From: Kofleriaceae bacterium
GTDB taxonomy: Bacteria; Myxococcota_A; Polyangia; Haliangiales; Haliangiaceae
Assembly (NCBI GenBank): GCA_018057825.1
Contig: JAGPCY010000027.1
Location: 62,001 to 126,000 of the forward strand
Reading direction: 5' to 3'
Length of the DNA: 64,000 bases
Shown here: positions 27,171-43,123 of the stretch, in pieces
Numbering within the stretch: the first letter of the stretch is position 1
Layout of the letters: each line of letters opens with the position of its first letter
Position numbers and translations under genes: made by a program
Notes under the pieces: generated by a model
The model's database searches: none
What the model saw: only the letters and a program-made list of their open reading frames with translations
What the model was told of the DNA's origin: nothing

Positions 27171-27252
27171 AACCAGCGGTCCGGAGACCCAGAGTAGGAT
27201 GCGGTACGCCCTCGCGACGAGCGGGGGCGTGTTGCGTTTCGGCGCGGTGATT

Positions 27253-27394
27253 TCGGACGCGGACTCGGACTCGGTCTCGGGCTCGGACTCGGTCTCGGGT
27301 TCGGGCTCGGCCTCGGGTTCGGGTTCGGGTTCGGGCTCGGACGCGGACGCGGACGCGGACTCGGACTCGGGCTCGGGTTCGGGTTCGGGCTCGG
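27253..27394. repeat. Hexanucleotide tract B
   Basis: Nearly 24 units of 6 bp, plus-strand TCGGNC/TCGGGT with some GCGGAC units. The spacing is exactly periodic throughout. It lies 23 bp beyond the stop of the minus-strand TsaC-like gene. A frame through it would encode Ser-Gly/Ser-Asp (plus) or Glu-Pro/Glu-Ser (minus) dipeptides, without a convincing start. Confidence 0.93.
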
Positions 27395-27417
27395 TGGCCC
27401 GCACTGGGTGCAGAGAT

Positions 27418-28053
27418 TCAGGCGACGGCGCGTTCGACGTCGGTGACGGAGACGGCGCCGGCGCGGACGAGCTTCCAGGCGTCGGCGGTGACCTCGACGA
27501 GGGTCGAGGGTGGGGTGGCGGCGACGTCGCCGGCGTCGATCCAGAGCTCGACGGTGGTGGAGAACCGCTGGCGGACGGCGGCGGCGGAGGCGGCGCCGGG
27601 CTTGTGCTCGAGGTTCGCGCTCGAGACCAGGAGGGGAGCGCCGAAGGTCTTGACGACGGCGGCGGCCAAGGGCTCGTCGGTCATCCGCACGCCGACGGTG
27701 CCGGTGGCGCGGGTCAACATGCGCCGCGTGCCGTTGGTCAGCTCGTCGCTCGGGGGCAGGAGCAGGGTGAGGGGCCGCGGCCATACCCGCTCGGCCAGGC
27801 GACGGGTCACGGTCCAGCCGGTGCCGTCGACCACGCCCTTGGCGGCGGTGAGCGACGGCACGAGGACCAGGGCCGGGTGGCTCTTCGCGCGCCGCTTGCT
27901 CTGCATCAGGCGGGTCACAGCGGCGTCGGAGCGCAAGTCGGCGACCAGCCGGTAGGTGCCGCCGATCGGGATGCAGACCAGCGCGCCGTCGCGCAGGGCC
28001 TTGGTCAGGTCGGCGACGCGGGCCAGGGCCTCGGCCATCGGGACGATCTTCAC
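27418..28053 (-). CDS. TsaC/YrdC-like L-threonylcarbamoyladenylate synthase family protein
   Basis: 211 aa from the GTG at 28053, which has a TACCAT box 9 nt upstream; an ATG at 28038 and a TTG at 28074 are alternatives. The Sua5/YciO/YrdC fold is clear: LRDGALVCIPIGGTYRLVADLRSDAAVTRLMQSKRRAKSHP at the N-terminus (the K-R nucleotide site), ERVWPRPLTLLLPPS in the middle, and APLLVSSANL with the S-x-N motif. This family makes threonylcarbamoyl-AMP for the t6A37 tRNA modification. It lacks the Sua5 C-terminal domain. Whether it is TsaC or the YciO paralogue cannot be decided here. Flanked on both sides by hexanucleotide tracts. Confidence 0.85.
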   Translation of the reverse strand: MKIVPMAEALARVADLTKALRDGALVCIPIGGTYRLVADLRSDAAVTRLMQSKRRAKSHPALVLVPSLTAAKGVVDGTGWTVTRRLAERVWPRPLTLLLPPSDELTNGTRRMLTRATGTVGVRMTDEPLAAAVVKTFGAPLLVSSANLEHKPGAASAAAVRQRFSTTVELWIDAGDVAATPPSTLVEVTADAWKLVRAGAVSVTDVERAVA

Positions 28054-28094
28054 GTTCTGGCCATGGTACGCCAACCGAGGGCAGAGCGGGCAGG

Positions 28095-28373
<279 letters not shown>

Positions 28374-28685
28374 CTATCCGCGCCGGAGGAGGCGCCGGAC
28401 GACCGCCGAGGTCGCCGCGAAGGGCAGGGCGCCCAGGCCGCGGGCCACGGAACGGGTGAGGTCGGCGGCCAAGGCCAGCGGCGACCCGCCCCGGGCGACG
28501 ACGGCGGTCTTGGCGCCGGTCGCGGTGTCCTCGACGGCGCCCCGGGCCACGGTGCGCACGCCGTCGGACCGGATCTCGATCACCAGGCGGGCCACGACCG
28601 GCAGGTCCTCGTCCCGCGCAACCGCTGCGGAGGGGCGCGCAAGGAGCGACGCCGGAGGTGCAGGATCATCGTCCGTCTCAGCCAT
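28374..28685 (-). CDS. Hypothetical protein
   Basis: 103 aa, ATG at 28685, not recognised. The first 30 residues are acidic and Pro/Ala-rich, followed by a possible small alpha/beta unit (ARLVIEIRSDGVRTVARGAVED, then AADLTRSVARGLGALP and an Arg-rich end). No signal peptide. Codon third positions are GC-rich, as in real genes here. It is divergent from the act operon and its stop lies at the edge of tract C. Real but of unknown function, or possibly an over-called frame. Confidence 0.5.
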   Translation of the reverse strand: MAETDDDPAPPASLLARPSAAVARDEDLPVVARLVIEIRSDGVRTVARGAVEDTATGAKTAVVARGGSPLALAADLTRSVARGLGALPFAATSAVVRRLLRRG

Positions 28686-29022
28686 CGCGGGCGATGGTGA
28701 CCCATCGCGTCGGGGGGCGCTACCCGGTCCTGGATCCGTGCGGTGTATTGTCGCGCGCGATCGCGCCGCTCCCGCTTCCGGCCCCCTGCGCTCCTACGCC
28801 GCACTCCAATCGCGCGGAAGTTTTGGCAGAAGCTGCATCGGAGGTCGCGGGGCTCCGGTGGGCCCGGATCCCGCGACCGATCGCCTCGAAAATCGTCTGG
28901 CCCCGAACCTTGCGAGAACACTCCTGTCCATGGTGCAAAGGCCGCGCTCGCTGCGCGCGGGCGTGCACCGACCCTAGGCCGTCTCCGGCCGCTTCGACCC
29001 CCGACGCCCCGTAGGAACCGAT
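28686..29022 (+). other. Leader region of the act-cox operon
   Basis: 337 bp between the divergent 28374 gene and actA. A TATTGT at 28746-28751 is the best -10-like word and would give a leader of about 270 nt, but no matching -35 is seen. AGGAA lies about 8 nt before the actA ATG. No riboswitch or strong hairpin was recognised and the frames through it look noncoding. Confidence 0.4.
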
Positions 29023-29667
29023 ATGGCTCGCTTCCTGTTCCCAGAGTGGACCCAGCCACTCAAGAAGTACGTCATCACACCCGCCCTGTTGTTGGGGCCG
29101 GTCTACATCGTCGCGCTCGCGGCGGTGGTGAAGGACCCGCAGACCCTGCGCATCGGCTACATGCCGAACCAGCCGGTCCCCTACAGCCACGCGCTCCACG
29201 TCGGCGAGCTCGGCATGGACTGCCGCTACTGCCACAACGTGGTCGAGCGCGGCGCCAAGGCCGCGGTGCCGCCGGCGGCGACGTGCATGAACTGCCACCA
29301 GACGGTGAAGCCCAAGAGCGAGAAGCTCACGCCGGTCCGCCAGGCCTACTTCGAGAACGCGCCCCTCAAGTGGATCCGCGTGACCGACCTGCCGGACTAC
29401 GTGTACTTCAACCACTCGGCCCACGTCACCCGCGGCATCGGCTGCGAGTCGTGCCACGGCCGGGTCGATCGGATGGTCAAGGTCTACCAGAGCGCGCCGC
29501 TCACCATGCAGTGGTGCCTCGACTGCCACCGCGACCCGACGCCCAACCTGCGGGACCCGGCCAACGTGACCCAGATGGGTTACAAGGCCGCCCCGGGTGA
29601 GGGCGCGAAGATCGAGAAGGACCTGCGCATCAACCCGCCGACGGATTGCACCACATGTCATCGCTAG
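29023..29667 (+). CDS. actA: Alternative complex III subunit ActA, pentaheme cytochrome c
   Basis: 214 aa. One N-terminal membrane helix (YVITPALLLGPVYIVALAAVV, about residues 15-36) followed by a periplasmic domain with five CxxCH motifs: CRYCH, CMNCH, CESCH, CLDCH and CTTCH, the last at the extreme C-terminus. This matches ActA, which passes electrons from quinol oxidation in alternative complex III towards cytochrome c or the oxidase. It opens the operon and overlaps actB by 13 nt. Confidence 0.95.
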   Translation: MARFLFPEWTQPLKKYVITPALLLGPVYIVALAAVVKDPQTLRIGYMPNQPVPYSHALHVGELGMDCRYCHNVVERGAKAAVPPAATCMNCHQTVKPKSEKLTPVRQAYFENAPLKWIRVTDLPDYVYFNHSAHVTRGIGCESCHGRVDRMVKVYQSAPLTMQWCLDCHRDPTPNLRDPANVTQMGYKAAPGEGAKIEKDLRINPPTDCTTCHR

Positions 29668-32600
29668 ACCCCACGCTTGGTCCCGATCGCCTCGGCCTCG
29701 AGGGCCGCGGCTCTGACACCGACGGCGTCGACGCCGCGCCTCGCCACGGCTACTGGAAGAGCCTGGCCGACCTCGAGCCGACCGGCTCGGCGCCGGCCGC
29801 AGGCGCGCCGGAGGTCCCGACCGCTGGCGACGTCGTCGATCCGCTCAACCGCCGCAACTTCATGCAGCTCATGGGCGCGTCGATGGCCCTCGCCGGCGTC
29901 GCTGGCGCCGGCTGCAAGCGCTACGACCGCGAGGAGATCGTCCCGCTGTCGCGCCGCCCCGAGGACCAGGTCCCGGGCCAGACGCAGCGCTACGCGACCT
30001 GCTTCGACTTCGGCGGCATGACCCAGGCGCTCCTGGTCACCTCCTACGAGGGCCGTCCGATCAAGATCGACGGCAACCCCGAGCACCCCTTCGCCGGCGG
30101 CGGCGTCGTCGACGGCACCGCCCGCCACGCCGGCTCGTCGGTGTTCGCCCAGGGCTCGATCCTCCACGTCTACGACCCCGACCGCTCGCAGTCGGTGCTG
30201 AAGGACGGCAAGGGATCGACCTTCGAGGACTTCCGCGCGGTGGCCACCACGCTGCGCGGCAACCCGACCGGGCTGCGGGTGCTGGCCGAGGCCAGCTCGT
30301 CGCCGACCCTGGCCGCCCTCAAGCAGCGCGTGCTGTCGACGTTCCCGGGCGCCGCATGGCACGAGTGGGAGCCGGTGTCGTTCGACAACGAGCGCGCCGG
30401 CCTGCGCCTGGCCTTCGGCAAGCCGATGCGGGCGATGGCCCACCTCGACCGGGCCGCGATCATCGTCGCCCTCGACTGCGACATCTTCACCGAGCACCCG
30501 GCGTCGGCCGCCTACGCCCGCGACTTCGCGCGCAGCCGCCGTCCCGACGGCGGTTCCCTCGGCCCGGGCAAGATGAACCGGCTGTACGCGATCGAGAGCG
30601 CGTACACCCACACCGGCGTGGTCGCGGACCACCGCCTGCCGGTCCGCTCCGAGCACGTCCTGCCGGTCCTGCAGGCGATCGACTCGGCCCTGTCGGGCCG
30701 CGCCGCCGCCGGCGCCGAGGTCGTCGGCGAGGCCAAGGTCGCCGCGTTCCTGAAGGCCGTGGTCGGCGATCTGTCGGCCAACCGCGGCTCCGCGGTCCTG
30801 GTCGTCGGCCGTCGCCAGCCGGCCGCGGTCCACGCCCTGGTCGCCAAGATCAACGAGACCCTCGGCGGCAGCCTGGTGTCGTACTACGACGACCCCGAGC
30901 CCAGCCGGCTCGATCACGGCGACGCGATCGCCGCCCTGACCCGCGACCTCACCGCGAATCAGGTCCAGACCCTGGTCATCCTCGGCGGCAACCCGATCTT
31001 CGATGCCCCGGTCGACCTCGACTTCGCCGCGGCCCTGGCCAAGGCCAAGACCTCGATCCACCTGTCCGAGTACGCCAACGAGACCTCGGCGAAGTGCTCG
31101 TGGCACGTGCCGAAGGCCCACTACCTCGAGGCCTGGGGCGACGCCCGGACCTGGGACGGCACCTGGACCCTGGCCCAGCCGCTGATCCTGCCGCTCTACG
31201 GCGGCATCTCGTCGATCGAACTCCTCGCCCTCCTGCTCGGCGAGGCCAAGACCGCCGAGGCCCTGGTGCGCGAGCAGGTCGAGGCCGCCGGCTACGCCTG
31301 GCGGGCCTCGGTCCACGACGGCTTCGTCGCCGGCTCGGCGCCCAAGGCGGTCCCGGTCGCGATCGGCAGCCTGCCGCCGGCGCCCCTGACCGCGACCCAG
31401 ACCGCGGGCAGCCGCGGCGGCAACGGCGCCTACGAGGTGACGTTCTCTCCGTCGTCCCAGGTGTGGGACGGCCGCTTCGCCAACAATAGCTGGCTGCAGG
31501 AGACCCCGGACTTCCTGACCAAGGTGACCTGGGACAACGTCGCCCTGATCGGCAAGGACACCGCCGACGAGCTCGGCATCCACTCCCAGGACATAGTCCG
31601 GATCACCGTCGACGGGCGCAAGCTCGAGGTCGCGGCCCTGGTCATGCCGGGCCAGGCCCGCGGCTCGATCGCCCTGTTCCTGGGCGGCGGCCGCACCAAG
31701 GCCGGCGTGGTCGGCAACAAGGGCGGCGAGTGGAAGGGCGGCGGCTGGAACGTCTACGCGCTCCGGGCCTCGACCTCCCTCGACATCGCCGCCAACGCCC
31801 GGGTCGAGAAGACCGGCGGCACCTACGCCATCGCCACCACCCAGGATCACTGGGACATCCGCCAGGGCATGGACTTCCCGTTCGGCGCCGGCGACTCGCC
31901 GGTCACCGGCATCGGCGATCGCGGCATCGCCGAGCGCATGGATCGGATCGTCAAGGAGACCGACCTGGCGGCCTTCGCCGGCGGCGCCTACCTGGCCCAG
32001 CACCCCGAGCCGTTCTATCACGACGACAAGCACGGTCGCGGCTACTCGCTCTTCGAGGAGAAGACCTACGAGGGCCGCAAGTGGGCCATGGCCATCGACC
32101 TCGGGTCGTGCATGGGCTGCAACGCCTGCATGGTCGCGTGTCAGTCGGAGAACAACGTCCCGGTCGTCGGCAAGCGCGAGGTCGCGCGCAACCGCGAGAT
32201 GCACTGGATCCGCATCGACCGGTACTTCAAGGGCGACGTCGCCGACCCCGAGGTGGTGTCGCAGCCGGTGGCCTGCCAGCACTGCGAGAACGCGCCGTGC
32301 GAGCAGGTGTGCCCGGTCGGCGCGACGATCCACTCGTCCGAGGGCCTAAACGAGATGGTCTACAACCGGTGCGTCGGCACCCGGTACTGTCTCAACAACT
32401 GCCCGTACCGCGTCCGCCGGTTCAACTTCCTCGACTGGCACAAGGATCTCAAGGACGCCCGCAACAAGGTCCGCCGGCTCCTGTTCAACGCCGACGTCAC
32501 CGTCCGCGAGCGCGGCGTGATGGAGAAGTGCACCTACTGCGTGCAGCGGATCCAGGCGGCCAAGATCGCGGCCAAGAACGAGCGCAACCGCGACGTCATC

Positions 32601-32828
32601 CCCGACGGCACGATCGTCACCGCCTGCCAGGCGGCGTGCCCGACCGAGGCCATCGTGTTCGGCGACCTGTCCGATCCCGATAGCCGCGTGTCGCGCCTGC
32701 ACGGCGACCGTCGGCAGTACGAGCTCTTGAGCGACCTGAACGACAAGCCGCGGACGCGCTTCCTCGCCCGCGTGAAGAACCCCCACCCGGACTTGGTGAG
32801 CAAGTCGGGTTCGCACGGAGGCCACTGA
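29655..32828 (+). CDS. actB: Alternative complex III subunit ActB (molybdopterin-like plus FeS domains)
   Basis: 1057 aa from the ATG inside actA. Near residues 66-90 is a twin-Arg motif RRNFMQLMGAS, ending in an AGC lipobox-like site, so export by Tat and lipid attachment are possible. Residues 100-780 resemble the molybdopterin oxidoreductase fold, but in the family this domain lacks the cofactor. The C-terminal FeS domain has CMGCNACMVAC near 818, CQHCENAPCEQVC near 874, a C-x4-C-x3-C segment near 905 and CTYC near 958 with CQAACP later, giving ligands for three [4Fe-4S] and one [3Fe-4S] cluster as in known ActB. Followed 3 nt later by actC. Confidence 0.95.
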   Translation: MSSLDPTLGPDRLGLEGRGSDTDGVDAAPRHGYWKSLADLEPTGSAPAAGAPEVPTAGDVVDPLNRRNFMQLMGASMALAGVAGAGCKRYDREEIVPLSRRPEDQVPGQTQRYATCFDFGGMTQALLVTSYEGRPIKIDGNPEHPFAGGGVVDGTARHAGSSVFAQGSILHVYDPDRSQSVLKDGKGSTFEDFRAVATTLRGNPTGLRVLAEASSSPTLAALKQRVLSTFPGAAWHEWEPVSFDNERAGLRLAFGKPMRAMAHLDRAAIIVALDCDIFTEHPASAAYARDFARSRRPDGGSLGPGKMNRLYAIESAYTHTGVVADHRLPVRSEHVLPVLQAIDSALSGRAAAGAEVVGEAKVAAFLKAVVGDLSANRGSAVLVVGRRQPAAVHALVAKINETLGGSLVSYYDDPEPSRLDHGDAIAALTRDLTANQVQTLVILGGNPIFDAPVDLDFAAALAKAKTSIHLSEYANETSAKCSWHVPKAHYLEAWGDARTWDGTWTLAQPLILPLYGGISSIELLALLLGEAKTAEALVREQVEAAGYAWRASVHDGFVAGSAPKAVPVAIGSLPPAPLTATQTAGSRGGNGAYEVTFSPSSQVWDGRFANNSWLQETPDFLTKVTWDNVALIGKDTADELGIHSQDIVRITVDGRKLEVAALVMPGQARGSIALFLGGGRTKAGVVGNKGGEWKGGGWNVYALRASTSLDIAANARVEKTGGTYAIATTQDHWDIRQGMDFPFGAGDSPVTGIGDRGIAERMDRIVKETDLAAFAGGAYLAQHPEPFYHDDKHGRGYSLFEEKTYEGRKWAMAIDLGSCMGCNACMVACQSENNVPVVGKREVARNREMHWIRIDRYFKGDVADPEVVSQPVACQHCENAPCEQVCPVGATIHSSEGLNEMVYNRCVGTRYCLNNCPYRVRRFNFLDWHKDLKDARNKVRRLLFNADVTVRERGVMEKCTYCVQRIQAAKIAAKNERNRDVIPDGTIVTACQAACPTEAIVFGDLSDPDSRVSRLHGDRRQYELLSDLNDKPRTRFLARVKNPHPDLVSKSGSHGGH

Positions 32829-32831
32829 GTC

Positions 32832-34205
<1,374 letters not shown>

Positions 34206-34237
34206 GCGCCCCTGACCGCTCCCAGCGGAGAGAGCCC

Positions 34238-35533
34238 ATGGAAGCTACCCACACTGACAACGACGACGCGCGCGGCCACGACGACGCGCCCGGCCACGGC
34301 GGGGGCGACGGCGGCCACAGCCACGGCGACGCCGGCGGCGGCCCCGACACCGAGCTGCACGGCCTCCTGGCCGAGTTCGAGACCCCGGGGGCGCTGATCG
34401 CGGCCGCCCGCAAGGTCCGAAACGCCGGCTACACCGAGTTCGACTGCTACAGCCCGTTCCCGGTCCACGGCATCGACGACGCCATGGGCATCAAGCGGAC
34501 CCGGCTGCCGCTCATGGTCTTCGCCGGCGGCCTGGCCGGCCTTCTCGGCGGCGTCCTCCTGCAGTGGTGGATGAACGCCTACAACTGGCCGTGGAACGTC
34601 TCCGGCAAGCCGACCTGGAGCATCCCGGCCAACGTGCCGATCGCCTACGAGACCACGATCCTCCTGTCGGTCTTGACCACCTTCTTCGGCATGTGGGCGG
34701 CCAACAAGCTGCCCCAGGTCTGGCACCCGTTCTTCCGCCTCGACCGCTTCGCCAAGGTCACCGACGACGGCCTGTTCCTCGGCATCGAGGCCTCGGACCA
34801 GCGCTTCGAGCTCGACCAGACCAAGCAGCTCCTGGTCGCCGCCGGCGCCACCCACGTCGAGGAGTGCCACGTCGACACCCGGCCCGAGGCCCGCAACGTG
34901 CCGAAGTGGATCTTCGGCATGATGATCATCCTGACCGTGCTCGCGGTCATCCCGTTCATCCTCGCCTGGCGGGCCCAGGGCCAGCGCTCGAGCCAGCCGC
35001 ACTGGCACATCTTCTCGGACATGGACTTCCAGCCCAAGGCCAAGAGCGACCAGGGCTTCGCGGAGTTCGCCGATGGCCGCGCCAACCGCGGCGCCATCCC
35101 CGGCACGATCGCCTCGGGCAGCTTGAACGCCGACGACGCGTACTACCGCGGCCTGCGCGACGGCCAGTGGATCACCGAGCTGCCGCCTGGCCTCAAGGTC
35201 GACGACAAGCTGATGGACCGCGGGCAGGAGCGCTTCGGCATCTTCTGCGCCCCGTGCCACGGCTACGACGGCCAGGGCAACGGCATCGTGCCCGAGCGCA
35301 TGAAGATGGCGGGCGGCGCCTGGCAGGCCGCCAACCTCACGGGGCCGGCCATCATCCGGCTGCCCAACGGCCAGCTCTTCAACACCATCTCCAACGGCGC
35401 CAACACCATGATGGGCTACGCGGCCCAGATCCCGGTGCAGGACCGCTGGGCGATCGTCCTCTACGTCCGCGCGCTCCAGCGCGGCCAGAACGCCACCGCC
35501 GCCGAGGTTCCGGCCGGCGCCCAGGTCCGGTGA
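34238..35533 (+). CDS. actDE: Fused ActD-ActE: DUF3341 membrane subunit plus monoheme cytochrome c
   Basis: 431 aa. Residues 1-40 are His/Gly/Asp-rich. Residues 42-215 match ActD (DUF3341): LLAEFETPGALIAAARKVRNAGYTEFDCYSPFPVHGIDDAMG, then two membrane helices and the THVEECHVD end. A third helix (IFGMMIILTVLAVIPFILAWRA) leads into ActE, a cytochrome c domain with CAPCH near residue 345 and a Met ligand candidate in NTMMGYA near 391. In many organisms actD and actE are separate, so this is a fusion that fixes their stoichiometry. It ends 7 nt before actF. Confidence 0.93.
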   Translation: MEATHTDNDDARGHDDAPGHGGGDGGHSHGDAGGGPDTELHGLLAEFETPGALIAAARKVRNAGYTEFDCYSPFPVHGIDDAMGIKRTRLPLMVFAGGLAGLLGGVLLQWWMNAYNWPWNVSGKPTWSIPANVPIAYETTILLSVLTTFFGMWAANKLPQVWHPFFRLDRFAKVTDDGLFLGIEASDQRFELDQTKQLLVAAGATHVEECHVDTRPEARNVPKWIFGMMIILTVLAVIPFILAWRAQGQRSSQPHWHIFSDMDFQPKAKSDQGFAEFADGRANRGAIPGTIASGSLNADDAYYRGLRDGQWITELPPGLKVDDKLMDRGQERFGIFCAPCHGYDGQGNGIVPERMKMAGGAWQAANLTGPAIIRLPNGQLFNTISNGANTMMGYAAQIPVQDRWAIVLYVRALQRGQNATAAEVPAGAQVR

Positions 35534-35540
35534 GGCAGCC

Positions 35541-36824
35541 ATGAGCGCAACCAAGTCGCTTCATCCCGACGAGAAGTACAAGGCCGACAAGCTCGGCAAG
35601 CAGCTCTTCAAGTACGGCGCCGGTCTCGGCGTGGTGCTGATGGGCCTGTCGGTGATCCTCGGCGCCGCCGCCGGTGGATCGTTCCGGCACTTCCTCCACG
35701 CCTACCTGACGGCGTGGTCCTTCGTGTTCTCGATCTGCCTCGGCTCGCTGTTCTTCATCCTGATCCACCACCTGGCCAAGGCCAAGTGGGGCATCGTCTT
35801 GCGGCGCCAGGCCGAGTTCATCACCGCGGCGCTGCCGGCGGTCGCGGTCTTCGGCCTGGTGCCGATGGTGGCGATGCTGGCCGGCAACGAGCAGCTCTAC
35901 TACTGGGCCATCCCGCAGGTCCACGACAAGAGCCACCCGCTCTACCACCACATGCACGCCAAGGCGGCGTGGCTCGACGAGGTCTTCTTCGTCGGCCGCT
36001 ACGTCCTCTACTTCGCGATCTACATCGGCCTGGCGCAGTGGTTCCGCAAGCAGAGCCAGGCCCAGGACGCCGACGGCGACGCCGGGCGCTCCGAGAAGAT
36101 GCGCTACTGGTCGGGCGTGTCGGTGCTGGTCTACTCGATGACCACGTTCTTCGCGGTCACCGACTGGTTCATGACCCTGCAGCCGCTCTGGTACTCGACG
36201 ATCTACGCGGTCAACTACTTCTCGGGCGCGATGCTGGCCACCTACTGCACGCTGGCGCTCCTGTCGATGGCGATCCAGCGCACCGGCCGCCTGACCCACT
36301 CGATCAACGTCGAGCACTACCACGACATCGGCAAGTACATGTTCGGGTGGACGTTCTTCTGGATCTACACCGCGTTCTCGCAGTTCATGCTGCAGTGGTA
36401 CGGCAACATGCCCGAGGAGACGGTCTTCTACAGCTACCGGATGTTCGGCGGCTGGCAGTTCGTCTCGATCCTCGTGCTGGTGGGCCACTGGGCCATCCCC
36501 TACGTGTCGCTCATGACCCGGTGGAGCAAGCGCATCCTGCCCATCCTCGCGGCCCTCGCGGCCTGGCAGCTCATCTTCCACTACATCGATCTGTACTGGA
36601 ACGTGATGCCCAACCAGACCTGGACCGTCGTCGGGCAGTGGAACCTGGGGCCGCTCCAGGGCGACCCCGACACCCACAAGGTCGGCTTCCACGCCATGGA
36701 CCTCACGCTCCTGGTCGGCATGATCGGCCTGTTCCTGGCCGCGGTCGGCAAGGCGATGAAGGGCAACCTGCTGCCGGTCCACGACCCGAAGCTCGGCGAG
36801 TGCCTGGCGTTCGAGAACTACTGA
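35541..36824 (+). CDS. actF: Alternative complex III subunit ActF
   Basis: 427 aa with about ten membrane helices, homologous to ActC and the second large integral subunit. Family signatures are LDEVFFVGRYVLYFAIYIGLAQWFRKQS near residues 145-175, MTTFFAVTDWFMTLQPLWYSTIYAVNYFSGAML near 200-232, and MFGWTFFWIYTAFSQFMLQWYGNMPEET near 270. ActF may be part of a proton path. Complete length. The start is 7 nt after actDE and the stop 15 nt before the next gene. Confidence 0.95.
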   Translation: MSATKSLHPDEKYKADKLGKQLFKYGAGLGVVLMGLSVILGAAAGGSFRHFLHAYLTAWSFVFSICLGSLFFILIHHLAKAKWGIVLRRQAEFITAALPAVAVFGLVPMVAMLAGNEQLYYWAIPQVHDKSHPLYHHMHAKAAWLDEVFFVGRYVLYFAIYIGLAQWFRKQSQAQDADGDAGRSEKMRYWSGVSVLVYSMTTFFAVTDWFMTLQPLWYSTIYAVNYFSGAMLATYCTLALLSMAIQRTGRLTHSINVEHYHDIGKYMFGWTFFWIYTAFSQFMLQWYGNMPEETVFYSYRMFGGWQFVSILVLVGHWAIPYVSLMTRWSKRILPILAALAAWQLIFHYIDLYWNVMPNQTWTVVGQWNLGPLQGDPDTHKVGFHAMDLTLLVGMIGLFLAAVGKAMKGNLLPVHDPKLGECLAFENY

Positions 36825-36839
36825 GCCATCGAGGCAACC

Positions 36840-37466
36840 ATGAGCGCCCAAGGCGAGAAGAAGAACCCCGACAAGCTGAACACGGTCGGCATCGTCACGG
36901 TCGGCCTGGCCGGCTCGGCGATGGTCTATATCGCGATCATCGGGGTCCAGGCCCTGTACCAGAACGAGACCTCGCAGGTCGATGAGGTGGCGCAGTTCGG
37001 CCGGCAGGCCGACGTGCGCAACACCCTCAAGGCCGAGCAGGTCGGCTACATCAACGAGCCGCGCATCCGCCAGGGCGCCACCGGGATCGGGGGCGCGCAG
37101 CTCCACATCATCCCGATCGAGGCGGCCAAGGACCTGGTCCTGAACGACGTCAAGGTCGATCCGGCGAACCTGGTCCCGGCGGTCTCGCGCTCCGAGTTCA
37201 CGACCATCAAGCCGGTGTTCGGTCGCCCGGTCGCGCTGCCGGGGCCCGTCGGTATCGGCCAGAGCGCGCCGCCGCCGCCGCCCGTCGATCCGGCCGCGCC
37301 GCCTGCGTCCGGTGACGGGGCCGCCCCGCCGGCGGGTGGGACGGTTCCGCCGACGACCGAGGCTCCGGCTCCGGCGGCTCCGGCTCCGGCGGCTCCGGCT
37401 CCGGCGGCTCCAGCTCCCACTGCGCCGGCTCCGACGGCGCCGGCGCCCACTGCTGGCGGGCGTTGA
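36840..37466 (+). CDS. Membrane-anchored unknown protein of the act-cox operon
   Basis: 208 aa. One N-terminal helix (VGIVTVGLAGSAMVYIAIIG, about residues 18-37), then a periplasmic domain of about 85 residues with QVDEVAQFGRQADVRNTLKAEQVGYINEPRI near 44-74, and a long Pro/Ala tail with APAPAAPAP-type repeats from about residue 140. No heme or metal motif. The position between actF and the SCO1 gene suggests an extra structural or assembly part of the respiratory supercomplex. The stop overlaps the next ATG (TGATG). Not recognised beyond that. Confidence 0.8.
   Translation: MSAQGEKKNPDKLNTVGIVTVGLAGSAMVYIAIIGVQALYQNETSQVDEVAQFGRQADVRNTLKAEQVGYINEPRIRQGATGIGGAQLHIIPIEAAKDLVLNDVKVDPANLVPAVSRSEFTTIKPVFGRPVALPGPVGIGQSAPPPPPVDPAAPPASGDGAAPPAGGTVPPTTEAPAPAAPAPAAPAPAAPAPTAPAPTAPAPTAGGR
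37361..37450 (+). repeat. 15-bp tandem repeats coding the Pro/Ala tail
   Basis: Repeats of GGCTCCGGCTCCGGC encode the APAPA tail of the 36840 protein. The first copies are nearly identical and the later ones have diverged. Length variation between strains is possible. Confidence 0.85.
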
Positions 37467-38341
37467 TGATCGCGCGCGGCTGCGTCCTGGTCACCTGCCT
37501 GGCGATGCTCGCCGGGGTGGCCGAGGTGCGCGCCGCGCCGACGGTGCCCGGGCGCGCGGCCGGCGAGTCCGAGCTGGCCCCGGTGCCGCCGTCCCTGGTG
37601 GCGGCGGTCAAGGTCGAGGAGAAGCCGCTGGCGGTGGTCCCGAAGGCCACGCGGTTCCGCACCCTCGATGGCGCGGTCACCACCCTCGGCGAGGTGCTCG
37701 CCGGTGACCTGCCGACGCTCCTGACCTTCAACTACTCGAGCTGCCCGTCGCTGTGCAGCCTGCAGTTGAACGGTCTGGTGAAGGCCCTGGCCGGCTCCTC
37801 GTATCGCGTCGGTCGCCAGGTTCGGGTGGTCACGATCGGGCTCGCCCCCGACGAGTCCCCGGCCGACGCCGCGCGCCAGCGCGAGCGCTACCTGGCCAAG
37901 CTGCGCGAGCTGGGCGCCGAGGTCGAGTCGGCCGGTTGGGTCTTCCTCCTGGCCGAGCACCCCGACAAGGACGTCACCGTGCGCGCGGTCGCCGACGCGG
38001 TCGGCGTCGGCTACCAGTTCATCCCGACCCAGCGCGAGTACGCCCACCCGGCGGTCACGGTCGCGCTGTCGTCGCAGGGCGCGGTCACCCGCTACGTCCA
38101 CGGCGTCGAGCCCAACCCCATCGAGCTCGACGAGACCATCCGCCGGGCGGGGCTGGCCGAGCCCTCGACCTCGACCGGCTTCGTCATGGCGTGCCTGCAC
38201 TGGGACGCCGCCGCCAACAGCCAGCGCTGGGGCGGCACCGTCTTGCGGATCGCCGCCCTCGTGTTCCTCGCCCTCGGCGCCCTCGCCGTCGGCGTGCTGG
38301 TCGCGCGGAATCGCCGCGGACCTGGAGTTGACCCCTCATGA
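37466..38341 (+). CDS. SCO1/SenC family copper chaperone
   Basis: 291 aa. A signal peptide ends AEVRAAP near residue 25. The thioredoxin-like SCO domain has NYSSCPSLCSLQ near residue 93, where the C-x3-C pair binds copper, and a partner His candidate in TRYVHGVEP near 212. A C-terminal helix (LRIAALVFLALGALAVGVLVA) anchors it to the membrane, unlike many SCO proteins that are anchored N-terminally. It delivers copper to the CuA site of CoxB, encoded next, with which it overlaps by 4 nt. Confidence 0.93.
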   Translation: MIARGCVLVTCLAMLAGVAEVRAAPTVPGRAAGESELAPVPPSLVAAVKVEEKPLAVVPKATRFRTLDGAVTTLGEVLAGDLPTLLTFNYSSCPSLCSLQLNGLVKALAGSSYRVGRQVRVVTIGLAPDESPADAARQRERYLAKLRELGAEVESAGWVFLLAEHPDKDVTVRAVADAVGVGYQFIPTQREYAHPAVTVALSSQGAVTRYVHGVEPNPIELDETIRRAGLAEPSTSTGFVMACLHWDAAANSQRWGGTVLRIAALVFLALGALAVGVLVARNRRGPGVDPS

Positions 38342-39660
38342 AGCTCACCAAGGCGCTGCTCTCGATGGCGCTCGTGCTCGGCCTGTACGGGGCCGGCGCA
38401 GCGCAACCCACGCCAGCCCCGGTCGCGCCGCCACCGGCTGCGGCCCCGACGGCTGCGGCCCCGACGGCTGCGGCCCCGACGGATCCCGCGGCGGCTGCGG
38501 CCCCGACGGCTGCGGCCCCGACGGATCCTGCGGCGGCTGCGGCCCCGACGGCTGCGGCCCCGACGGCTGCGGCTCCGACGGATCCTGCGGCGGCTGCGGC
38601 GGCGCCAGCCCCGGCTGCGGCTCCGGCGGCTCCCGCGGCGGCGGCGGCTCCCGCGGCGGTGCCGGCGGGCGGCCAGCCGTGGTGGGAGAAGATGGCCGGC
38701 AAGGACATCAAGGACTCGAGCTACACCCACGCCGGCACCTACTGGTTGCCGCCGGCGGTGTCGACCGGCGCCGATGGCCCCGACAAGCTGTTCATCGCGA
38801 TGATCGCCATGTCGGCGTTCTTCTTCTTCGCGATCACCGGCGCGATCATCTACCTGGTGTGGAAGTACCGACACCGCCCGGGCCACAAGCCCGAGCCCTC
38901 GGCCTCGCACAACGACGCCCTCGAGATCACCTGGACCGTCATCCCGACGATCATCTGCGTGATCCTCTTCGTCTACGGCTGGCGCTCGTACCTCCAGAAC
39001 GTGACCGTGCCCGAGCCCCGCCAGGAGAACGTGGTCTACGTCGAGGGCTCGAAGTGGAACTGGAACTTCCGCTACTACAACGGGCTTCAGGATAACGTCC
39101 TGCACGCCCCGGTCGATCAGCCGGTCAAGCTGGTCATGACCTCGCGCGACGTCCTGCACTCGTTCTTCGTCCCGGTGTTCCGCATCAAGCAAGACGTCGT
39201 CCCGCGCCGCTACACGTACCTGTGGTTCCAGGCCACCAAGCCCGGCGTCTACCGCGTGTACTGCACCGAGTACTGCGGCACCGACCACTCGATGATGAAG
39301 ACCAAGGTCGTGGTCCACGAGGCCGGCCAGTACGAGCGCTACCTGTCCGAGGCCTTCGCCGCCAAGGCCTCGCTGTCGGGCTCGGCCCTGGGCAAGGACG
39401 TCCACGCCAAGAAGGGCTGCGCCGCCTGCCACTCGGTCGACGGCGGCCCGATGCTCGGCCCGACCTGGAAGGGCGCCTGGGGCGCCGACGTCCCGCTCGA
39501 GGGCGGTGGCTCGGTCAAGTACGACGAGGCCTACGTCCGCACCGCGATCCAGAACCCGACGGCCCAGGTCCACAAGGGCTTCCCGCCGGCGATGCCGATG
39601 ACGCCGCTCTCCGACAAGGAGATCGAGGGCGTGATCGCCTACATCCAAGAACTCAAGTAG
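38338..39660 (+). CDS. coxB: Cytochrome c oxidase subunit II, caa3 type
   Basis: 440 aa. A signal peptide is followed by an Ala/Pro/Thr-rich stretch to about residue 115, then two membrane helices (about 140-165 and 195-215). The CuA domain has [13 protein letters not shown] near residue 308 with all copper ligands, and [10 protein letters not shown] upstream, the electron-entry Trp region. A C-terminal cytochrome c domain (CAACH near 360, PPAMPMTPL with the Met ligand near 420) makes it a caa3-type subunit that can take electrons without a separate cytochrome c. The start overlaps the SCO1 stop. Confidence 0.96.
38436..38600 (+). repeat. Tandem repeats in the coxB linker
   Basis: Repeats of GGCTGCGGCCCCGAC arranged in a higher-order unit of about 42 bp that ends in GGATCC(C/T)GCGGC. 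They encode the Ala/Pro/Thr linker between the signal peptide and the first membrane helix, and may expand or contract. Confidence 0.85.
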
Positions 39661-39670
39661 CGAGGCCGAC

Positions 39671-41344
<1,674 letters not shown>

Positions 41345-41380: not shown

Positions 41381-42640
41381 ATGAGCCAGCCCAGCCACGA
41401 CCACCACGACGACCACGGCCACCACGGCTCGCGGTTCATCCAGCACCACTACGACGACGCCCAGCACCAGTTCGACTCGGGCAAGCTCGGGATCTGGTTC
41501 TTCCTGGTCCAGGAGATCCTGTTCTTCTCGGCGCTGTTCGTCGCGTACATCCTGTACCGCCACCACCGACCCGAGATCTACGCCTACGCCCACTCCTACC
41601 TCGACGTGAAGTGGGGCGCGATCAACACCGCGGTGCTGATCGTGTCGTCGCTGTCGGCGGCGTGGGCGGTGCGGTGCGCGCAGCTCGCGCAGCGCCGCGG
41701 CCTGATCGCGGCGCTGGCGATCACGATCGTCTGCGCGCTCGGGTTCCTCGGGATCAAGACCGTCGAGTACACCCACAAGGTCCACGAGCGGATCCTGTGG
41801 GGCCGGTACTTCGACCCGTGCATCGCCGCCGCCGGCAACCCGCTGCTCAACAAGGGCAACAACTGCCCGGGCGTCAAGACCTCGGTGGTCTGGGACAGCG
41901 CCACCAACAAGGCCGGCGCCGGCTGCCTCGACGGCGACTACGATCTCGACAAGCGCCAGGACGGCATCCAGGCGATCTGCGAGGTCGCCGAGGTCCGGGC
42001 CCAGACGACGGTGACCTACAAGGACGTGCCGGACGACAAGCGGCCGGGCAAGACCAAGCGCGAGGCCAGCTACGTCACCCAGGAGCTCGGCCGGGTCGCG
42101 ATCGCCAAGTGCGAGCCGGGCAAGAGCGCCAAGCCGTGCTGGCAGCTCGCGGTCCACCCGAAGATCTGCCCGACCGGCCCGGCGGCGATGGTCCTCTACG
42201 GCGATCACACCGTGCGCGCCAGCGTCCCGACCAAGTCGGCGGGCACCGGCCTGCGCATCGAGGCGTCGTGTCAGGCCGCGCCGGCCGCGGCCGCCGCCGC
42301 CGGCGACGCCTTCGCGCCGGTCGAGGGTGGGCAGGGCCTCGGTCAGGGTGGCCTGTCGACCGCGCCGCGCAAGAGCGCGCACGATCTCAAGCGCGAGTTC
42401 CAGAGCGGGCCGCCGCCCGAGCACACCAACATGTTCTTCAGCATCTACTTCGCGATGACCGGGCTCCACGGCATCCACGTGCTGGTGGGCGTGTTCATCT
42501 TCATCTGGCTCCTGTGGCGGGCGATCCGCGGCGACTTCACGCCTGACTACTTCGGGCCGATCGACTACGCCGCGCTGTACTGGCACCTGGTCGACCTGAT
42601 CTGGATCTTCCTGTTCCCGCTCCTCTACCTGATCCACTGA
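41381..42640 (+). CDS. coxC: Cytochrome c oxidase subunit III with a large Cys-rich insertion
   Basis: 419 aa, about twice the usual 200 aa. Residues 1-34 are His/Asp-rich. Helices 1-3 (about 36-58, 80-100 and 106-125) and helices 4-5 (from HTNMFFSIYFAMTGLHGIHVLVG near 348 to the end) match CoxC. Between them, from FDPC near 145 to about 345, is an insertion with eight Cys, Lys-rich text and an Ala/Gly linker. With the standard topology this loop is periplasmic, so disulfides are possible. It is absent from normal caa3 subunit III and does not look like a sequencing error because the reading frame and codon bias continue through it. Confidence 0.92.
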   Translation: MSQPSHDHHDDHGHHGSRFIQHHYDDAQHQFDSGKLGIWFFLVQEILFFSALFVAYILYRHHRPEIYAYAHSYLDVKWGAINTAVLIVSSLSAAWAVRCAQLAQRRGLIAALAITIVCALGFLGIKTVEYTHKVHERILWGRYFDPCIAAAGNPLLNKGNNCPGVKTSVVWDSATNKAGAGCLDGDYDLDKRQDGIQAICEVAEVRAQTTVTYKDVPDDKRPGKTKREASYVTQELGRVAIAKCEPGKSAKPCWQLAVHPKICPTGPAAMVLYGDHTVRASVPTKSAGTGLRIEASCQAAPAAAAAAGDAFAPVEGGQGLGQGGLSTAPRKSAHDLKREFQSGPPPEHTNMFFSIYFAMTGLHGIHVLVGVFIFIWLLWRAIRGDFTPDYFGPIDYAALYWHLVDLIWIFLFPLLYLIH

Positions 42641-42742: not shown

Positions 42743-43123
42743 ATGGCTGACCACGCCCACGCTCACGACGACCACCACGGCATCTCCCACGTGGCCCCGG
42801 TCAAGGTCCTGCTCGGGACCTGGATCGCGCTCATGATCCTGACGGTGATCACCGTCGGCGCGACCAAGATCGATCTCGGGGCCTCCTACAACCTGGCGCT
42901 GGCGATGGCGATCGCGGTCGTCAAGGCCACGCTGGTGGTGCTGTTCTTCATGCACCTGCGCTACGACAAGCTGTTCCACTCGGTGCTGGTGGTCGGGGGC
43001 ATCCTGGCGGCCGCGCTGTTCGTCGGCTTCGCGCTCATGGACTCGAACCAGTACCAGGCCTCGATCATCTGGGACGTCAGCGCGCCGCCGGCGGCGCCGA
43101 TCGGTCCGCCGCCGCTGCCCTGA
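42743..43123 (+). CDS. coxD: Cytochrome c oxidase subunit IV
   Basis: 126 aa, matching the bacterial caa3-type subunit IV family. A His/Asp-rich N-terminus, like those of ActC, ActDE and CoxC, precedes three helices: VLLGTWIALMILTVITVG, LALAMAIAVVKATLVVLFFMHLRYDK (the conserved KATLVVLFFMHL signature) and SVLVVGGILAAALFVGF. It ends in a Pro-rich tail. Last gene of the respiratory operon, 102 nt after coxC, with GGAG before the ATG. Convergent with the FecR-like gene. Confidence 0.93.
   Translation: MADHAHAHDDHHGISHVAPVKVLLGTWIALMILTVITVGATKIDLGASYNLALAMAIAVVKATLVVLFFMHLRYDKLFHSVLVVGGILAAALFVGFALMDSNQYQASIIWDVSAPPAAPIGPPPLP

What the first reader, a model, noticed from the sequence alone, without database searches (positions are those of the whole stretch)
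41815..42420. CoxC carries a ~200-residue Cys-rich periplasmic insertion
Subunit III is 419 aa against the usual 200. The insertion lies between helices 3 and 4, which places it in the periplasm, and contains eight Cys (two CxxxxC-like spacings and others), many Lys and a Pro/Ala/Gly linker. It could dock cytochrome c, hold the act complex, or bind metal. This is the most specific protein novelty in the window.
Basis: partly seen in the sequence, partly recalled or inferred. Interest (0 to 1): 0.75.

Follow-up and report, generated by a model that had tools for sequence, protein, structure and literature searches.

The report
Cytochrome oxidase subunit with borrowed domain
In one group of uncultured soil myxobacteria, a core membrane subunit of the oxygen-reducing respiratory enzyme carries an extra cysteine-rich domain on its outer face that is related to the tail of a family of surface lipoproteins, a fusion we found nowhere else; what it does there is still unknown.

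Summary
CoxC (41381-42640, 419 aa) has five predicted TM helices and a ~200-aa periplasmic insertion between helices 3 and 4 with eight Cys. It is no assembly quirk: 23 of 30 genomes of the family (Kofleriaceae, Haliangiales; separate MAGs) carry it, all eight Cys occur in 20/20 aligned copies, and none of 372 phylum genomes outside the family has it. The last six Cys (C182-C297) form a ~115-aa module homologous to the C-terminal module of VWA-domain lipoproteins (CglD/MIDAS-adhesin-like): an HMM built only from those lipoproteins hits every insertion (window E 5e-9) and no decoy or short-loop CoxC; profile-profile E 5e-18. The lipoprotein version is older and wider, so the module most likely moved into CoxC once. 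The domain alone is modelled as compact and all-beta (pLDDT 90), with no PDB fold match. No CXXCH, CxxC or CxxxC motif exists; net charge is not conserved; the surface evolves fast (dN/dS 0.1-1.2) while the Cys stay fixed. I favour a disulfide-stapled steric brace on the ACIII-facing side of a caa3 oxidase (about 0.4), over cytochrome c docking or metal binding. Identity is well supported; function is inferred.

The parts
41381..42640 (+). coxC, cytochrome c oxidase subunit III, 419 aa, five-TM type with long periplasmic insertion
41459..41785 (+). TM helices 1-3 of CoxC (residues 27-62, 76-101, 105-135; equivalent to III-V of seven-helix COX III)
   Evidence: AF2 model; Foldseek to COX III chains
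41798..41923 (+). CoxC-specific N-terminal extension of the insertion, with Cys147 and Cys162 (FDPC..LLNKGNNC)
   Evidence: conserved in 20/20; absent from the lipoprotein modules
41924..42271 (+). six-Cys module (C182, C200, C244, C253, C263, C297) homologous to the C-terminal module of VWA lipoproteins; all-beta model
42272..42406 (+). Ala/Pro/Gly-rich linker back to helix 4, 42-50 aa in all homologues but low in sequence conservation
42425..42631 (+). TM helices 4-5 of CoxC (residues 349-383, 392-417)
39671..41344 (+). coxA, subunit I
   Evidence: Pfam COX1
38338..39660 (+). coxB, subunit II with CuA domain and C-terminal fused cytochrome c (caa3 type)
   Evidence: Pfam COX2 and Cytochrom_C
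42743..43123 (+). coxD, subunit IV
   Evidence: Pfam COX4_pro
37463..38341 (+). SCO1/SenC-like copper chaperone (sub-threshold Pfam hit)
   Evidence: conserved in the operon
36840..37466 (+). one-TM operon protein without Pfam or PDB match, found only in the family's operons
29023..36824 (+). alternative complex III genes: ActA 29023-29667, ActB 29646-32828, ActC 32832-34205, ActD fused to a cytochrome c 34238-35533, ActF 35541-36824
   Evidence: ActF to PDB 6f0k_F E 5e-62

Best explanation
What it is (well supported, about 0.92): CoxC of an ACIII-caa3 respiratory operon has captured, between its 3rd and 4th TM helices, a six-Cys extracytoplasmic module homologous to the C-terminal module of myxobacterial VWA lipoproteins, preceded by a CoxC-specific two-Cys extension. 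The capture most likely happened once, inside the Kofleriaceae-like family. How it most likely works (inferred, about 0.4): the cysteines form structural disulfides in the periplasm, giving a rigid beta domain that stands on the ACIII-facing subunit of the oxidase and acts as a steric brace or cap. It would fill space between oxidase and ACIII, or confine the tethered cytochrome c domains, rather than bind a cofactor or present a strictly conserved docking site.
For: Homology: the insertion profile A1 searched in the whole own genome finds only CoxC and VWA lipoproteins (E 6.6e-4). One lipoprotein module alone finds CoxC of G005 and G003 (E 1.8e-4, 2.7e-4). An HMM of 53 lipoprotein modules with CoxC excluded hits every long-loop CoxC tested (E 5e-13 to 1e-2; window 5e-9) and no reversed or shuffled decoy (6 per CoxC) and no short-loop CoxC. 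Profile-profile comparison gives E 5e-18 and 1e-12 with the Cys in register. In a six-frame search of the own genome, lipoprotein profile A7 finds CoxC at E 7.7e-5. Single origin and polarity: CoxC modules form one group with 100/100 support. Lipoprotein modules occur in other families of the order and class whose CoxC lacks the insertion. Fold: domain model pLDDT 89.9, pTM 0.81, all beta. Position: the five-helix subunit III mediates ACIII contact in F. johnsoniae (PMC8361435), and the act-cox gene order is kept across the long-loop loci that reach far enough upstream. Brace rather than specific interface: Cys invariant while the module shows dN/dS 0.1-1.2 against 0-0.3 in TM helices; related act-cox operons carry unrelated expansions in the same loop.
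Against: No direct functional or structural evidence. Disulfide pairing was not read from the model (coordinates not available). In G017 and G023 a second act-linked CoxC has a canonical short loop, and short-loop relatives keep the whole act-cox operon (L059, L061), so the domain is not required for ACIII-oxidase pairing. No other operon subunit shows an obvious matching length change. Near-neutral rates would also fit a tolerated passenger domain.
Confidence: 0.45

Rival explanations
1. Tolerated passenger: the V-VI loop is a permissive site, a module landed there and persists without a specific role; the Cys are kept only because a misfolded periplasmic domain would damage an essential subunit.
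For: Near-neutral rates in parts of the module and linker; large length variation (loop about 193-338 aa) and further nested insertions in L018-L022; unrelated low-complexity expansions at the same loop in other act-cox operons.
Against: Kept in every genome of the carrier genera in which the operon's CoxC was found, with all eight Cys and a linker of nearly constant length; no reversion was seen inside the clade.
Confidence: 0.27
2. Ligand or partner module: it keeps an adhesin-like protein-binding role and ties the respiratory complex to another periplasmic or outer-membrane component, for example a VWA lipoprotein.
For: Lipoprotein homologues have weak CglD and MIDAS-adhesin similarity. A VWA lipoprotein with this module is encoded beside the cox operon in G009 (about 0.5 kb from coxC) and within about 2.4 kb in G007. 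A fast-evolving surface on a fixed scaffold fits a binder.
Against: The VWA gene is not near coxC in the window or in the other long-loop loci with 10 kb of flank; the binding function of the lipoprotein module itself is unknown; the VWA domain with the MIDAS motif is not in CoxC.
Confidence: 0.17
3. Docking site for ACIII or for a mobile cytochrome c through a specific interface.
For: Right face of the oxidase by analogy with F. johnsoniae; periplasmic location.
Against: Surface poorly conserved, net charge -12 to +3; CoxB already has a fused cytochrome c; short-loop orthologues keep the same operon.
Confidence: 0.1
4. Metal-binding or redox-active (thiol) domain.
For: Eight conserved Cys.
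Against: No CXXCH, CxxC or CxxxC in the protein; six Cys shared with the extracytoplasmic lipoprotein module; few conserved His.
Confidence: 0.04

Closest known systems
C-terminal module of myxobacterial VWA lipoproteins (weak NCBIfam hits to MIDAS family adhesin NF052240 and gliding lipoprotein CglD NF033765)
   Same: Six Cys in the same order, GxQxxC and PCW motifs, about 90-115 aa, extracytoplasmic
   Different: Here it is not after a VWA domain but inside a membrane-protein loop, with an added two-Cys extension and no VWA/MIDAS domain
Five-TM cytochrome oxidase subunit III in ACIII-oxidase supercomplexes (F. johnsoniae, Sun et al. 2018 as reviewed in PMC8361435)
   Same: Five TM helices lacking canonical I-II; act-cox operon
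   Different: About 200-aa disulfide-type periplasmic insertion between helices 3 and 4; the review does not describe one there, and supercomplex formation was not tested here
CtaE/QoxC/CyoC subunit III (PDB 7qhm_F, 6kob_C, 1fft_C)
   Same: TM core, sequence and fold
   Different: These solved relatives are about 184-206 aa with no inserted domain matched

Membership tests
Cytochrome c oxidase subunit III (PF00510) | COX3 sequence profile and TM fold | tested here: met
   Pfam E 1.7e-17 in two pieces; Foldseek to COX III chains E 6e-4, prob 1.00; profile to PDB COX III E 7e-21
Cytochrome c oxidase subunit III (PF00510) | Position in a coxBACD operon with CoxA and CoxB | tested here: met
VWA-lipoprotein C-terminal six-Cys module | Six Cys in register plus GxQxxC and PCW motifs, detected by a profile built without CoxC | tested here: met
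VWA-lipoprotein C-terminal six-Cys module | Attached to an N-terminal VWA domain with MIDAS motif and lipobox | tested here: not met
   CoxC has no VWA domain; 40 of 52 lipoprotein-type ORFs carry the MIDAS motif, several of the rest being truncated. Only homology of the module is claimed, not membership of the lipoprotein family
VWA-lipoprotein C-terminal six-Cys module | Same disulfide pairing and fold | not testable with these tools
c-type cytochrome or CuA-type domain | CXXCH heme motif or CxxxC copper motif | tested here: not met
   no match in the 419 aa
ACIII-associated subunit III | Encoded in an act-cox operon | tested here: met
ACIII-associated subunit III | Physical supercomplex with ACIII | not testable with these tools
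   needs purification or cryo-EM

The most novel reading that the evidence does not exclude
A core respiratory subunit has acquired a protein-binding module from surface or periplasmic adhesin-type lipoproteins and uses it to tether the ACIII-caa3 supercomplex to another envelope component, with its surface diversifying on a fixed disulfide scaffold.
Probability: 0.1. Interest if true: 0.75.

Novelty: new variant of a known kind. Interest (0 to 1): 0.55.

Why it matters
Subunit III belongs to the conserved core of heme-copper oxidases, and insertion of a whole extracytoplasmic domain from an unrelated lipoprotein family into its loop is unexpected. It gives a natural marker for the ACIII-facing side of the oxidase and a testable way to ask what subunit III contributes to ACIII supercomplexes, which is poorly known. 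It also shows that the V-VI loop of act-linked CoxC tolerates large domains, and it defines a six-Cys module that Pfam and NCBIfam do not hold.

Tried and rejected
Assembly artefact or frameshift: rejected, 20 open homologues in other assemblies. Pfam and NCBIfam naming of the insertion: nothing. PDB sequence search with the insertion profile: only chance hits to interleukin-18 (E 0.09 or worse). PDB fold search with the isolated domain: no match (Foldseek best E 0.087, prob 0.08; VIA-align best Z 4.4, archaellar FlaG, below the level that means anything); this does not show that the fold is new. Donor gene: the VWA gene next to coxC in G009 ranks first against the insertion profile, but with its own genome's CoxC left out of the profile it ties with a lipoprotein of another family (33.1 against 32.3 bits), and the tree has too few columns, so a local origin is only suggested. 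Cys co-loss to infer pairing: uninformative, since missing Cys are mostly ends of alignments. Matching insertions in other operon subunits: none obvious. Literature: no paper in the library combines the terms for subunit III insertions in Haliangium or Kofleriaceae; this is not proof of absence.

Full report
Observation. The ORF at 41381-42640 encodes a 419-aa subunit III. Pfam COX3 matches both ends and leaves residues about 145-347 unassigned. AlphaFold2 with 32 sequences gives five TM helices (27-62, 76-101, 105-135, 349-383, 392-417), with the insertion between the third and fourth; Foldseek places the whole model with COX III chains. By the established topology of COX III, this loop, V-VI of the seven-helix form, faces the periplasm.

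Context. The gene is the third of coxBACD, downstream of alternative complex III genes (ActA, ActB, ActC, an ActD-cytochrome c fusion, ActF), a one-TM protein of unknown family and an SCO-like protein. CoxB has a fused cytochrome c domain, so the oxidase is of caa3 type. This gene order is kept in the long-loop loci that reach far enough upstream, and in most of the short-loop relatives, including Planctomycetes.

Distribution. Homologues with the insertion occur in 23 of 30 family genomes, in genera g1, g4, g5 and g6 (the 24th match, in G004, is a lipoprotein). It was not found in three same-family genera (g2, g3, g7); where their CoxC was found, the loop is 92 aa (L025, two Cys) or 107 aa (L024, none). 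It is absent from all 372 genomes outside the family in an even sample of the phylum. Record titles name Kofleriaceae, Myxococcales and Deltaproteobacteria MAGs; NCBI places Kofleriaceae in Haliangiales. In 20 of 20 aligned copies all eight Cys are present (in the window row the fifth Cys is shifted by a gap but lies in the same IxxC context). A sub-group (L018-L022) has a further nested insertion with four or more additional Cys.

What the insertion is. Searching the own genome with the insertion profile gave two further loci (E 6.6e-4 and 0.75), both lipoprotein-like VWA proteins, matching at their C-termini. The relation was tested in several ways. A single lipoprotein module used as query finds matches in 35 of 36 relatives' genomes at E <= 1, the strong ones being VWA-type ORFs, and among its weaker hits the CoxC of G005 (1.8e-4), G003 (2.7e-4) and G010 (1.8e-3). 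A profile built only from 53 non-CoxC modules hits every long-loop CoxC tested, the window at E 5e-9, with no hit among reversed or shuffled copies and none to short-loop CoxC at E up to 100. hhalign of the two families gives E 5e-18 and 1e-12, with the Cys, GxQxxC and PCW in register. In a whole-genome six-frame search, lipoprotein profile A7 returns CoxC at E 7.7e-5. The match covers C182 to C297; the C147-C162 segment is a CoxC-specific extension. G007 CoxC also has two Cys at about this place (GCNF...GQC), which may be the ancestral state of that part (inference).

Origin. In a tree of 70 modules the 23 CoxC copies form one group with full support, although the alignment is short and most inner forks are open. 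Lipoprotein modules are found in other families of the order and class where CoxC lacks the insertion, so transfer from lipoprotein to CoxC is the simpler direction. In G009 and G007 a VWA lipoprotein gene with the module lies beside the cox operon. That makes a local donor attractive, but the leave-one-out ranking does not single it out, and in the window the place after coxD is followed directly by FecR/sigma genes.

Structure. The isolated domain (residues 140-301) is predicted with pLDDT 89.9 and pTM 0.81 as all-beta, with two long strands. No PDB fold match stands out.

Evolution. For five pairs of orthologues, dN/dS (NG86, rough) is 0-0.3 in the TM helices, 0.1-1.2 in the module and 0.4-1.1 in the linker, although the Cys do not change. 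The closest pair (L003-L005) shows purifying selection in the module (0.13-0.37). So the scaffold is selected, while much of the surface is either weakly constrained or diversifying; NG86 cannot tell which.

Mechanism. Shown: a clade-conserved module with fixed cysteines, at a loop that is periplasmic by COX III topology, on the subunit that in F. johnsoniae makes the contact with ACIII (PMC8361435). Inferred: disulfides, rigidity and a steric or bracing role. Against a strict docking role: fast surface evolution, variable charge (-12 to +3), same-operon relatives without it, and a second act-linked CoxC with a short loop in G017 and G023. Other act-cox operons carry unrelated Ala/Pro/Glu-rich expansions in the same loop, which suggests that bulk, not sequence, may matter there, or that the site is merely permissive. 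I put 0.4 on brace or cap, 0.27 on passenger, 0.17 on tether to another envelope component, 0.1 on specific docking and 0.04 on metal or redox.

Novelty. Subunit III, the five-helix ACIII-linked form and VWA lipoproteins are known kinds. The fusion of the lipoprotein module into subunit III was not found in any named family here, in solved COX III structures or in the open-access papers searched. I rate it a new variant of a known kind.

Noticed in passing
L018, L019, L020, L021, L022 (CoxC loop, between the seventh and eighth Cys): A second, nested Cys-rich insertion (GWFFxWxCTGxxC...GPF...C...C) inside the CoxC module of one sub-group; no Pfam match.
   Followed up: partly
L057, L063, L081, L082, L087, L091, L092, L096, L097 (CoxC loop): Other act-linked CoxC (mostly Polyangia) have unrelated long expansions at the same loop (HFxPxHxVWExxxFKxKHPE followed by Ala/Pro/Glu-rich sequence), without the Cys: the loop is an insertion hotspot.
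   Followed up: partly
window 36840-37466: One-TM operon protein after actF with a Pro/Ala-rich tail, found only in this family's act-cox operons, no Pfam or PDB match; in L061 its tail has a Cys-rich stretch (TCDEASCLLDPTNPCCEAL).
   Followed up: partly
L162 (G023), L165 (G017), L159 (G012): Second, diverged act-cox operons in the same genomes, with short-loop CoxC.
   Followed up: yes
L148 (4847-6235, G009) and L149 (10655-12103, G007): VWA lipoprotein gene carrying the same module lies beside the cox operon; absent at this place in the window.
   Followed up: yes
window 34238-35533: ActD is fused to a C-terminal cytochrome c domain (an ActD-ActE-like fusion).
   Followed up: no
window 27199-28977: 592-aa ORF with a low-complexity region just upstream of actA; only a weak low-complexity Pfam hit.
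   Followed up: no
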